NCBI GenBank assembly: GCA_002197995.1
Contig: NGZR01000003.1
Coordinates: 2,108,001-2,172,000, forward strand
DNA: 64,000 nucleotides
Origin: Gaeumannomyces sp. JS-464
Taxonomy: Eukaryota; Ascomycota; Sordariomycetes; Magnaporthales; Magnaporthaceae
Direction of reading: 5' to 3'
Position numbers and translations under genes: made by a program. Below the pieces are notes generated by a model, which ran no database searches, was not told the origin of the DNA, and worked only from the letters and a program-made list of their open reading frames with translations. Position 1 is the stretch's first letter. Every line of letters starts with the position of its first letter. This document shows positions 2,502 through 64,000 of the stretch, in pieces.

Positions 2502-4707
2502 TCATAGCTCCCAATCATACTGTACCCGGAAACATTCCTGTAGTCCGTTCAACATCGTCAACGGATGAATTTTCAGAATTCCGGCCCTGTAGAAGTGGCC
2601 CTTTACCTCTCCAGTTGGAAATAGCAGTAGGCACCTGAGAATAATGCCATCGTTGCTGGGGACGTCAATCTCGTTGCTAATAGCAAGAGCATGGAGCCGA
2701 TCAGTTGGAATACCGCTGCCATCAAAGCTGATGTCATCCCGTTCCACGGTCACCCAGGTGCCGTCGATATATAATCGCCACCCAGCTTGTTTCCCATCGT
2801 CTGATGCCCTCGCCTGCGTTGACCGCGCCGCCATCAGCCAGCCCGTGAGCCGCAGGTGGGCTCGGCGGATTTCGACGGTGTCGTCTTCGGTGCGCGATTC
2901 GATATCGCAGTTTCGGACGGTGACAACAATACCCCTTTCCCGGAACTCGTCTGGGCCTTCGAGAATAAAAACCCGGTGGTTGACGCTGGCCCAGGACCAG
3001 GTCGGCGGCGAGAACCCCTCTGGCAGTCGTGGTCGCCTTGGGCCGAAAAAGGCCGATGCGTTGCAATGCCAGCGCGATTGGCGGCCAAGATTCTGTTTCC
3101 AGAGACCAGCCCAGTAATCGGCTTGGAAGTTCGCCTTGAAGAGCTTGACGATCCCAGATATCGCGACGAGCCTGTCACTTTCGAAAGTCAAATCACACCT
3201 GCTGTATAGCTCGACAACGGATCCCAAAGCGCTGAGAAACTCGTAATCCTTGACGCTGTACCCCAGGTACATTTCGAAGAAATCCGAAAACCTGGGCATC
3301 CCCAACGACGGGTTCTTGACCATTTGGACGGTTTCTCTTGGTATCCAATAGCCATTCATTTCCAAAGTTGGCATGCCCGCTAAATACGTTTCAGATGCAT
3401 GAACCTCTTCGCATTCCCAAAACATTTCGGTCTGGCAGAAGTGCAAAACCCGCGGGGCTAAGAAAAGCTCTTGGAATACCCATGCCCGTGACATTAGCGG
3501 GTGGGATTTAAAAGCATCCGTCTGGTATCTTCTGCCGGTTATATTGTACGAGCCATCGGGTATGATCGTTTCCTTGACCGTAACATGCGTTGGACCGACG
3601 TTTGCGGATGTTTTTGGAAAGAGGCCTGCGTCCGTGTCGACTGCCGCCGTGGCTGCGATATTAAGCAAAGCTCCGCCATACACGTCAGCCATCCGAGGGC
3701 CTTCGAGTAGCCAGTCCTGGTCGGAGTCTTGTTGAATGCAGAGTGAGTCGATCCAGATAAATCGGATGCCCAGATCGCGGGTGAACGCAACGGCGTCGCT
3801 AAAAGTGCGACCAATTTCGGAGATGGCAACGCCTCGTTCCAACCGTTTTGTTGTGGACGCTTCAAGCTTGAATCTATTCGTGGTGGGATCGCCCCAGCAG
3901 TGACTGAGGGTTGCGTAGGGGTGAGCACTTCTCGCTGGTTCGACGAAAAGTTGGCAGTGCAAACCACACGAACGTCCTCAACACCCGGGGTGCCTATTTC
4001 CAGCAACCGAGTGGGGAGTTGCCTCTTGACCACTTTCAGACGGGCTGCCCGACACCTGTCGTGATTGTCCAAGCAGTATTTGAGCCATTGCCGGGCATGA
4101 TTGACGCAAAAAGGAGGGTGGCTGCTCGTCGTGGCAGCTGAGGCCGACATTTCTTGACAGTCTGGAGCATCTAGGGTGTCAGCCGGGCCATAGCAAAGAA
4201 AACATTAAGGTCAATGTAGACGGAATCTCGGGCTCTTACTTGATAAGGGTGTCAGAGTAAAGACCTCGGAGTGGCGACCCTTATCACCCTTCCGGTACTT
4301 GCGGTGAGCACCAAAACGCCCCCTGACCCATCGTCCTCATAATGCAAGGAGTACTTTGTGAAGAGTTTGCCCGGCTTGTCTACCCGATTTGGATCGAGAC
4401 TCGTGTCAAGGGCTTGAGAATCGAAAGTATCATTGGACAAGCTGCAGAATTCGGGTGGGGATGCGCCGGATGCCTGACTGTTGGCGACAGTGTCGTCAGG
4501 GTTTTCTGAGGGGAAAACGTCATCTTCATCCAGGCCGTCCAAAAAACGACTGCAAATGTAACAACCTTGGGCGGCAGATTGTTGAAGCCCAGCGAATGTA
4601 CCCTGATGCGTCCCAATCTCGGTTTCCTACACGCTGCCACCGTTTTCTCTAGCGGCCGTGGCTGGAGGGGGGAAAACCCGGTCGCAGGCCTGGCAAATGT
4701 GGCCCAT
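2502..4707 (-). pseudogene. HET-domain (heterokaryon incompatibility) gene, degenerate
   Basis: HET domains act in fungal vegetative incompatibility, triggering cell death after fusion of unlike strains. The core reads well from 3961 to 2502: HPYATLSHCWG, then FIWIDSLCIQQD, NIAATAA and SRAWVFQELFLAPR, which are the classic HET blocks. The upstream part is also recognisable: an ATG at 4707 gives MGHICQACDRVF, and QSAAQGCYICSRF follows, the cysteine pairs common at HET N-termini. Three breaks are seen. There is an in-frame TAG at 4627-4629 (codon 27). A frame change is needed around 4260-4300, before a plausible intron at about 4170-4242 (GTAAGA ... CTGAC ... TAG). One base is missing near the G run at 3918-3921, just before the YATLSHCWG block. 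The stop makes a pseudogene more likely than pure sequencing error. Confidence 0.8.
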
Positions 4708-4795
4708 CGCCTTTGCGGGTAGTAGTAGATGGTGCCAGACTTGCAGCCTGACGGCGGCCGCGGCAGCCGAAGAAGGGGGAAATGCTTCTCAAGCA

Positions 4796-4868
4796 CCTAG
4801 CTAGGTAGTAGGTAGGTAGGTGCCTACTGTAGGTAGGTAGGTAGTAGGTAGGCAGGTACCTAGGTAGG
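4796..4868. repeat. TAGG/CCTA-rich simple repeat cluster
   Basis: About 70 bases made of overlapping GGTAGGTA and ACCTAGG units. The same motif recurs as short palindrome-like islands across the window (see findings). Here it lies between the HET gene 5' end and the FAM32A-like gene. Confidence 0.8.
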
Positions 4869-61169: not shown

Positions 61170-62280
61170 TGTGCATCTCCCTGCTTCGCATCGGCGCCAC
61201 AGGCCCCTTCGGAGCAGAATCAGCAGTGCGTCTGATGGCTTCTCCGCGACAGTAGTCTGTGTGTCCCGCATCTCCTTCGGACGAGGCCGAAGTTGGGAAA
61301 GTTGGAGATATCGGCAGGCCAATGCACCCTCCCCCTGAATCCTACCTAGCTGGTTGTACGAGCCTCCCAACTCGGGCCGTCTGAAGCGCGCCCGTCAAAG
61401 CACCAAACACCAGGTGCCAGAGAAGCAAGGCGCACAAAGCTCGACTTGACGGGCGAACAAAGAGACAGCAGGACATGCTGGATACCGAGAACACGTTCTT
61501 GGTCCGTGTTAGATGCTATTGATCCCCGGAGGTGTACCCTAGGGGATTCTTCTTGTCTACACGGGTGCTCGTGAGCGCCCCGAGGAGGGAAGGTTAATCC
61601 CCATCGTAGCTAACGACATGCAATCACCTTGGCTTTATCTTGTTCCTAGCGGTTTCGCGGAAATCAGAGCCCCGGTACCTCTCTGCTGAGCAGTAGTAGG
61701 TGCAGGCCACATATATTTTCGCCACGTTGGACAGAAACAGGTAGCCTCGGGTTGCTACATAATTAGTACTTTGATAATCGACAGACCTGTAAGGCAAAAT
61801 TCTACCTTGTCTCCGGCGCGATTTTGGAAAAGGACCGATCTAGTGTGTCGCTCATGGAGGTTTAATGACGAGATATAGTAATTACGGCTTTCAAGCTCAC
61901 CCGATACAAGGGCTGAAATGCGTTGAGCGGGAACATGCCCAGTAACGCTGTCCAACATATCATGTCCTGGGGTTACACGGACAACAAGAGACTCAAGAAT
62001 ATGGCTCGTTGCAATGTAGCTTTTCAGCCATCTGACCCGGATTTGCTGTTGGCGCCGTAGGGCTCCCGGAAGTGACCGGGAGGCGATAGTCGAGACGCAG
62101 GGTCTCGCAATATGACCATACAACTGTATACATCGCCGGCCACCATTGGTTGTCCGCAGCGGATCAATGGCCAGGATGATGCCTTCATGCTTCCAATCTA
62201 GGTGTAGCATATCAGAACTGCTGTTCACACTGTTGCACACAAGCCGATTAAGGGAGCAAAAGAAAGCTAGGCAGCAACAA

Positions 62281-64000
62281 CTACGCCTTGGCCTCCCCGG
62301 CAAGACCTAGGTCCTTCTCCGCCATAGCCCTGCAGATAGGATGGTAGAAGTCCTTGTTCTTCTCGAACGTCTCAAGCGCGAGAGGCCTGTCGACCTTGTT
62401 CAGGGCCCGGAACAGGGGGCGCACAAACTTCATCCTGCCAACCTGGCCTAGCAGCTCGGCGACGCCCGCATAGACGGCAGAGTCCTTGGCGCTTAGGGCG
62501 ATCTGGTAGTAGGCCGTCTTAAGTTCGACATTCTTGGTGTTGAGGAGATCATAGGCGGTGCCCATCAGCTGCGCGCGCTCGGCCGAGAGCGGCTCGGTAA
62601 AGTCCTGCACCGAGTTGAGGAAGACCAGCTTCTGGTTGCCGGCCCAGTCGGCGACGTCCTTGCTGCTCGGGACGTAGTCCTGTTTTCCCGCCGTATAAGT
62701 CAGTGATCCGGTCGCGGACGGCTTTTGTTACTCTCGTTTCCTTTCTGTGACACTGGTAATAACACCGAGGTATTTCTTACCTTGCTCTTCCACTTCTCAG
62801 CCAAGGCGTAGCAGACGTCGATGAGCGAAGTGTCAAAATCAGGCTTCGGCGGGAGGCCTGGGCTGTAGAAGCGGCCCTCCCAGTCGATGCCGGCAATTTT
62901 ATCCTTCAGAGCGGCATATTCAGGCTTGTCGAAGAATTCGAGGAATGTGTCCTTGAACTGGTACGAGTCGAGGGACTTGGTTGCCCACTTGGTGAAGTAG
63001 TAAGGGATGAACTTATCAAAGTTCTCACGGCCGACTAAGCGGTCAAGGTAGTACACCATATGGAAACCCTTTTCGTAGGGGACCGTCGAAAAGGCGTCAT
63101 CAGGGTCTATGCCGTCGTGGTTGATGCACAGCTTGGTGAACTCGTGGTCCGCGCCAAACTCCTCGATAGCGTCCTCTGGTAAGGCGCAGCAGTTAGCAAC
63201 ACGGGCGTTTCCGACGAGGCCGGCCTAGTGGCTGAGGAGGGGCAGACTCACCGAGGTGCTTCCACCCTATCACGGCAGAGAAGTCAAAGTAGGGTTGCCC
63301 TCGGACAGCGGCAATGATCCTGCGCTCGAGGTACATGGTCCAGCCCTCGTTCAGCCAGCTAGTGAAACATGGTCAGCGCATCCCGGCGGAATAGCAACAT
63401 GGGAAGAAATGGACACGAGAAGAAGATAGACGAGCAAGTCCATGGGTCCACTCACTAGTGCTCCCAGCTGCAGGATGTCACCAGGTTCCCAGACCAGCTG
63501 TGGCTCAGTTCGTGGGCGATAACGTCGACGTTCTGGCGGTCACCGCTGATGATGGTCGGCGTGGCAAACGTGAAGATGGGGTTCTCCATGCCTGTTTTCT
63601 GTTAGCCCTGCCTCCCCGGTGTTCCCGAGGACAACCTCCGGCTTTGATGGAGAATGCGACCAATACAGTGAACGTACCTCCGTATGGGAAGCTCGGGGGC
63701 AGCACCAGAACATTTGTACTCTCCCCACTTGTAAGGGAACACAAGCTTCTCGGCGGCGTCGATGAACTTCTGGACGTCCGCCTCGAGCTCCCACTGGCAT
63801 GCCGCGACCTCATCAGGGCCCGTGGCGACCGAGGAGCGAGGGCCAATGCGAGCAGTGGCAATGTCGCCCGAGGCCAGGGCGAAGAGGTACGAAGGGATAG
63901 GGACCTTCTGCTCGAAGCGGTACAGAGTGTCGCCATCCTCGGCCGCGGCAGACTTTTGGCCAGCATCCTCGACAGCGACGCCGCTAGCAACGACGACGTG
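62281..64000 (-). CDS. Leukotriene A4 hydrolase-type M1 aminopeptidase, 5' end outside window
   Basis: Zinc M1 peptidase that removes N-terminal residues; the yeast homologue (Lap2/YNL045W) also has epoxide hydrolase activity. Visible exons: >64000-63678, 63591-63456, 63358-63252, 63175-62781 and 62679-62281, with phases consistent across all four introns (76-101 bp). Motifs: GMENPIFTFATPTII, the zinc site VIAHELSHSWSGNLVT (HExxH) and WLNEGWT with the third ligand E. After these come FSTVPYEKGFHMVYYLDRLVG and the C-terminal helical domain (SLDSYQFKDTFLEFF; KVDRPLALETFEKNKDFYHP). One extra base (an AAA run on the coding strand at 63713-63715) breaks the frame between PYKWGEY and NVLVLPPSFPYGG. 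The N-terminal beta-domain lies beyond the right edge. Confidence 0.93.

What the first reader, a model, noticed from the sequence alone, without database searches (positions are those of the whole stretch)
3918..63715. Many conserved genes each carry a single-base frame break, mostly one missing base
Breaks are visible at about 3918 (HET), 6009-6026 (FAM32A), 12250 (unknown), 14506 and 15266 (SLC12), 21005 (trehalase), 27911-27952 (NASP), 31697 and 32460 (NACHT), 35055 (CysRS), 37750 (transposase), 44913 (Uds1-like) and 63713 (LTA4H). In SLC12, CysRS, Uds1-like and NASP, adding the implied net bases makes the whole spliced CDS divisible by three. Several breaks lie in or beside short C/G or A runs. 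Essential genes such as CysRS should not be dead, so residual indel error in an unpolished assembly is the simplest cause.
Basis: partly seen in the sequence, partly recalled or inferred. Interest (0 to 1): 0.75.

Follow-up and report, generated by a model that had tools for sequence, protein, structure and literature searches.

The report
Assembly errors that break fungal genes
Many genes in this fungal chromosome stretch look broken, but the same small insertions and deletions also litter nearly identical transposon copies and essential genes elsewhere in the assembly, so they are very probably sequencing errors and not biology.

Summary
The window lies in a 53 Mb, 34-contig Magnaporthales fungus near Gaeumannomyces/Magnaporthiopsis. 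Homologues show frame changes without an intron at the break in trehalase, CysRS, SLC12 (two) and LTA4H. A codon model gave 9 calls in 20.3 kb of coding sequence; 2 are introns, 7 remain (4 of them the trehalase, CysRS and SLC12 breaks), against 0 in 111 kb of simulated intact genes. HET and FAM32A hold up by eye, the NACHT sites are unproven, and the transposase change is shared with another copy. 'Mostly one missing base' fails at nucleotide level: of five resolved breaks two are one base short; the others fit two, five and one bases in excess. The best cause is assembly error. Breaks recur genome-wide (12 strict cases in 40.9 kb of conserved domains), including CCT eta, zeta and gamma, with no second copy among the loci compared. 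Twelve young transposon copies from two families carry 24 private indels of 1-4 bases, mostly deletions, against 12 private substitutions. No slippery motif or stop-codon rule fits.

The parts
3905..3950 (-). HET gene frame break (limits approximate): stretch upstream of the HET domain and the domain lie in different frames
   Evidence: HET domain full length in ORF 2502-3977; upstream stretch in another frame; by eye, no homologue alignment
6009..6026 (-). FAM32A frame break beside a GGC-type repeat
   Evidence: FAM32A profile 5-88 in ORF 5700-6332; likely start of the protein in another frame, by eye
12192..12312 (-). unknown gene, frame break near 12226
   Evidence: codon model shift
14381..14525 (-). 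SLC12 cation-chloride cotransporter, second break near 14506-14509, one base short
   Evidence: tblastn and frame-aware alignment to G. tritici and M. poae proteins
15253..15385 (-). SLC12, first break near 15270, one base short
20984..21015 (+). neutral trehalase, break near 21003, two bases in excess
   Evidence: Pfam Trehalase 1-243 and 230-496 in two frames; alignment to G. avenae protein, 614/632 identical
27704..27792 (+). NASP intron by eye (GT-AG), not a break although the codon model called it
27911..27952 (+). NASP (SHNi-TPR) frame break
   Evidence: codon model, SHNi-TPR start upstream, frames
31690..32495 (-). NACHT gene, two reported breaks, unproven
35055..35064 (-). CysRS (one of two CysRS genes of this genome) break, five bases in excess (tandem copy of a 5-mer)
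   Evidence: alignment to G. tritici protein, 782/815 identical; second gene
36763..38409 (-). Tc1/mariner-like DNA transposon with eight further copies at 98-100% identity; used as the error yardstick
   Evidence: DDE_3, HTH_23; copies and alignment
44829..45357 (-). Uds1-like gene, break near 44915
   Evidence: Uds1 domain, codon model, frames
63700..63727 (-). LTA4H/aminopeptidase break near 63713, one base in excess or two short; an intron follows by eye

Best explanation
The frame breaks are residual small-indel errors in the consensus of a long-contig assembly of a Magnaporthales fungus; most of the genes are ordinary and, by inference, intact in the organism. Shown: frame breaks in genes whose relatives are continuous; recurrence genome-wide, also in CCT subunit genes without a second copy among the loci compared; and many private indels, as many as or more than private substitutions, among near-identical transposon copies. 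Inferred: that they arose in sequencing or consensus calling; no reads were available. Single breaks, CysRS above all, may still be real.
For: (1) Abutting frame changes without an intron at the break: CysRS 782/815 and trehalase 614/632 identical to relatives, SLC12 81-93% per stretch, LTA4H. (2) Codon model: 7 shifts left in 20.3 kb after 2 introns were removed, against 0 in 111 kb simulated; on 30 fetched, partly overlapping loci it called shifts in 20 (introns not removed). (3) Five conserved domain families: 12 of 46 neighbouring match pairs are strict breaks, in 40.9 kb; CCT eta, zeta and gamma carry two each and are distinct from the other loci compared. (4) Transposons: 13 private indels to 2 private substitutions in seven young copies; 11 to 10 in five young copies of a second family. 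(5) 13 of 21 one-base deletions lie in runs of three or more against 21.5% of bases, p = 7e-5. (6) A paper on long-read assemblies reports short indels, mostly false deletions, tied to homopolymers (PMC12007338, passages).
Against: A second CysRS gene with a 777-aa open frame exists, so the window's CysRS is no proof of error; its five-base tandem excess, like the two-base excess in trehalase, is not the usual single-base homopolymer slip. Trehalase too has a relative with an open frame on C1. Long runs are kept, such as T27 at 53421. Density is uneven: 1.39 indels per kb in young copies of family 1 against 0.47 frame breaks per kb in three homologue-checked genes, P = 0.009; 6 of 12 strict domain breaks lie on C23, which holds 12% of the matched bases. 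In family 2 private indels only about equal private substitutions. Several conserved genes are unbroken, such as chaperonin-type genes on C30 and C34 and two RNA polymerase genes.
Confidence: 0.93

Rival explanations
1. The breaks are real mutations: the strain carries many decaying genes.
For: The sequence does carry the breaks. The window's CysRS has an intact second gene and a five-base tandem excess. The transposase change at 37750 is shared with a second copy.
Against: CCT eta, zeta and gamma are broken with no second copy among the loci compared (one weak C1 locus was not fetched). Protein identity beside the breaks in CysRS and trehalase is 96-97%. Private indels equal or exceed private substitutions in young transposon copies.
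Confidence: 0.05
2. The genes are read through by widespread programmed frameshifting or corrected by RNA editing.
For: 7 of 7 remaining codon-model breaks share one class modulo 3, as do 9 of 12 strict domain breaks.
Against: Sizes differ and LTA4H is of the other class. No in-register X_XXY_YYZ site near any of 8 breaks, and the upstream-frame stop is 15-126 nt beyond the break in 8 of 8. Relatives' proteins are continuous. Indels also occur at the transposon ends outside its open frames.
Confidence: 0.01
3. Most of the listed breaks are misread introns.
For: 2 of 9 codon-model calls were introns; 9 false calls over 72 simulated genes with an intron.
Against: The homologue-resolved breaks have no intron-sized gap at the break; 12 strict domain breaks have at most 20 nt between matches.
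Confidence: 0.01

Closest known systems
[quoted passage not shown]
   Same: Short indels, mostly false deletions, homopolymer-linked, breaking conserved genes (passages seen; data here)
   Different: Those passages concern mainly bacterial assemblies; here some 2-base and 5-base excesses at tandem motifs; sequencing platform unknown
Programmed -1 ribosomal frameshifting
   Same: Net change of one class modulo 3 in most breaks
   Different: No slippery heptamer in register, mixed sizes, absent in relatives, indels also at transposon ends
Stop-codon frameshifting of the Euplotes type (recalled)
   Same: Many genes affected
   Different: Breaks do not sit at stop codons of the upstream frame (8 of 8)

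Membership tests
Residual indel error of an assembly | Essential genes without a back-up copy broken, continuous in homologues | tested here: met
   CCT eta, zeta, gamma; one weak C1 locus of the family was not fetched
Residual indel error of an assembly | Genome-wide, not confined to one locus | tested here: met
   12 strict breaks on 5 contigs; transposon copies from 8 contigs compared, indels in copies on 6 of them
Residual indel error of an assembly | Private indels at least as many as private substitutions among near-identical repeats | tested here: met
   13:2 and 11:10 in young copies
Residual indel error of an assembly | Deletion bias and homopolymer enrichment | tested here: met
   13 deletions to 3 insertions in young copies of family 1; 13 of 21 one-base deletions (nine copies) in runs of 3 or more
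Residual indel error of an assembly | Accurate reads disagree with the consensus at the breaks | not testable with these tools
   no reads held
Programmed -1 frameshifting | Slippery heptamer in register at the site | tested here: not met
   0 of 8 breaks
Programmed -1 frameshifting | Frame arrangement conserved in relatives | tested here: not met
   relatives' trehalase, CysRS and SLC12 proteins are continuous across the points
Stop-codon frameshifting (Euplotes type) | Break sits at a stop codon of the upstream frame | tested here: not met
   stops lie 15-126 nt beyond the break in 8 of 8
Pseudogenes | Function covered by another copy or dispensable | tested here: inconclusive
   Not met for CCT eta, zeta, gamma; possibly met for CysRS, which has an intact second gene

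The most novel reading that the evidence does not exclude
A minority of breaks are real. The five-base tandem excess in the window's CysRS would be a genuine loss of a spare synthetase: this genome keeps another CysRS with an open frame, only about 43% identical to the G. tritici relative of the window's copy, while that relative stays 77-83% identical to proteins of distant fungal classes, as a horizontally spread or specially selected copy might. Together with the two-base excess in trehalase it could also point to a short-tandem-duplication mutator.
Probability: 0.1. Interest if true: 0.4.

Novelty: not a real feature. Interest (0 to 1): 0.08.

Why it matters
Automatic annotation of this assembly would report many false pseudogenes and truncated proteins, including essential ones. 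The transposon-copy comparison estimates indel error without reads and without relatives. If the breaks were real, a living fungus with broken chaperonin subunits would be remarkable, but the evidence points the other way.

Tried and rejected
Rejected: wholesale pseudogenes, programmed frameshifting, stop-codon frameshifting, and introns as a general cause (see rivals). Codon-model calls at 19868 and 27708 were dropped as introns. On fetched loci the model gave mixed classes and up to seven calls in one locus (L018), so it was not used for class counts there. A contig effect (C23 worse) is open: 6 of 12 strict domain breaks lie on C23; in family 1 the three C23 copies have 2, 1 and 6 indels and the six others 0 to 8; in family 2 the C23 copy has the most among the five young ones. 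rRNA copies were meant as another yardstick but the search did not complete. Papers: PMC12007338 passages only; PMC11905480 passages only; PMC8812927 start of the abstract in a listing only. Searches for a paper on this assembly found none in the held library. Rows dropped before counts: one chaperonin-type row (C12:4021165) of 29 and one HSP70 row (C32:580061) of 16; four looser breaks of 16 because an intron could hide in the gap; the last alignment column of family 1; L048 (92% identical) from the family 1 counts. Left out of the 'young' counts as older: L046 (21 substitutions, 8 indels) and L047 (31, 5) against the majority, L056 (19 private substitutions, 4 private indels) and L057 (63, 9).
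Full report
What the window is. The window is C23:2108001-2172000 of a 53.0 Mb genome in 34 contigs. The best-matching proteins are from Gaeumannomyces and Magnaporthiopsis (120 best listed per search), so it is a Magnaporthales fungus; the species could not be named. Reference proteins from G. tritici and G. avenae run on across the points in question. PacBio HiFi assemblies exist for those species (passages of PMC11905480); that these proteins come from them is inference.

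Checking the breaks. tblastn gives abutting matches in different frames in trehalase, CysRS and twice in SLC12. A frame-aware alignment that also allows introns puts an indel, not an intron, at each point: trehalase two bases in excess, CysRS five in excess as a tandem copy of a 5-mer, SLC12 one short at both places. CysRS is otherwise 782/815 and trehalase 614/632 identical to the relatives; the SLC12 stretches are 81-93% identical. In LTA4H yeast residues 178-263 end at 63713; a peptide in another frame matches LTA4H chains directly beyond (5ni2 264-277, E 0.067), then an intron leads back to the first frame by eye. Pfam agrees for trehalase, split over two frames.

A model without homologues. 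A codon-periodicity model trained on 27.6 kb (pieces of trehalase, CysRS and SLC12 included, and three pieces held a stop) direct shifts in 20,303 coding bases. The call at 19868 is a trehalase intron, that at 27708 a NASP intron by eye. Controls (simulated from training codons): 0 false shifts in 111,108 intact bases, 9 over 72 genes with a real intron, 60 calls for 72 one-base losses. HET and FAM32A hold up on reading; the NACHT sites could not be decided. The transposase change at 37750 is shared with copy L046. Other genes look intact: CobW in one 393-aa frame, and two isocitrate lyase pieces that match 5e9f 245-429 and 426-547 on either side of an 85-base gap.

Genome-wide. In five conserved domain families (chaperonin, HSP70, class I tRNA synthetase, RNA polymerase subunit 2, proteasome) 46 neighbouring match pairs over 40,851 matched bases were examined. 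Sixteen were flagged; 12 are strict (at most 20 nt between matches): C23 6, C1 3, C12, C30 and C32 one each; 9 of 12 are of the class 'one short or two long'. The broken genes include CCT eta, zeta and gamma, distinct from one another and from the other six loci compared (the weak C1:12659665 locus was not fetched). A fungus is not expected to live without them (established knowledge of the chaperonin). Unbroken members also exist.

CysRS is not single-copy here: a second gene at C23:6819111-6820477 has a 777-aa open frame and no stop, about 43% identical to the G. tritici relative of the window's copy. So the window's CysRS could really be broken. Trehalase also has a relative with an open 655-aa frame on C1.

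A test that needs no genes. The element at 36763-38409 has eight further copies at 98-100% identity. Among seven young copies of about 1.65 kb there are 16 indels (13 deletions, 3 insertions, all of 1-2 bases) and 13 substitutions against the majority. Counting only differences private to one of nine copies there are 13 indels and 2 substitutions. A second, related family gives 11 private indels (10 deletions) and 10 private substitutions in five young copies. Natural change in unselected DNA gives several substitutions per indel (recalled); even at three to one the first family's figures have p = 0.0005. One-base deletions are enriched in homopolymers: 13 of 21 in runs of three or more against 21.5% of bases, p = 7e-5 (nine copies). 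Indels also occur at the ends of the element, outside the window copy's longest open frames (columns 11, 24, 38, 66), where no reading-frame mechanism applies.

Mechanism. The simplest account is sequencing or consensus error that leaves short indels, mostly deletions; published long-read data show that profile (passages of PMC12007338). Programmed frameshifting fails: none of eight breaks has an in-register slippery heptamer and none sits at a stop codon. Points that do not fit a plain homopolymer model are the two-base and five-base excesses, the kept long runs and the lower density in genes than in transposons (0.47 against 1.39 per kb, P = 0.009); uneven polishing would explain the last but was not tested.

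Verdict. The finding is ordinary.

Noticed in passing
33117-35622 and L058 (C23:6818600-6820900): Two CysRS genes in this genome. The G. tritici relative of the window's copy (P0121) is 91% identical to a protein of Podospora appendiculata, 83% to one of Ampelomyces and 81% to one of Aspergillus terreus, while other fungal CysRS in the same list are about 55-62%. Horizontal spread or a specially kept spare copy is possible; no tree was made.
   Followed up: partly
L038 (C29:1500001-1510000) and L037 (C12:1500001-1510000): Two of three sampled 10 kb stretches have no coding signal; L038 is only 27.7% G+C, so the genome may hold large AT-rich blocks.
   Followed up: no
L046, L047: Older copies of the transposon hold most of the substitutions; over nine copies 46 of 65 are C>T or G>A, as repeat-induced point mutation would leave (that link is recalled).
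   Followed up: no
36763-38409: The longest open transposase frame among ten aligned copies is 340 aa, in L040; the window copy has 281 and 209 aa pieces.
   Followed up: partly
377-598: Tandem 99-base repeat, 33 codons per unit, ankyrin-like by length only.
   Followed up: no
C23 as a whole: 6 of 12 strict domain breaks lie on C23 although it holds 12% of the matched bases; error density may differ between contigs.
   Followed up: partly
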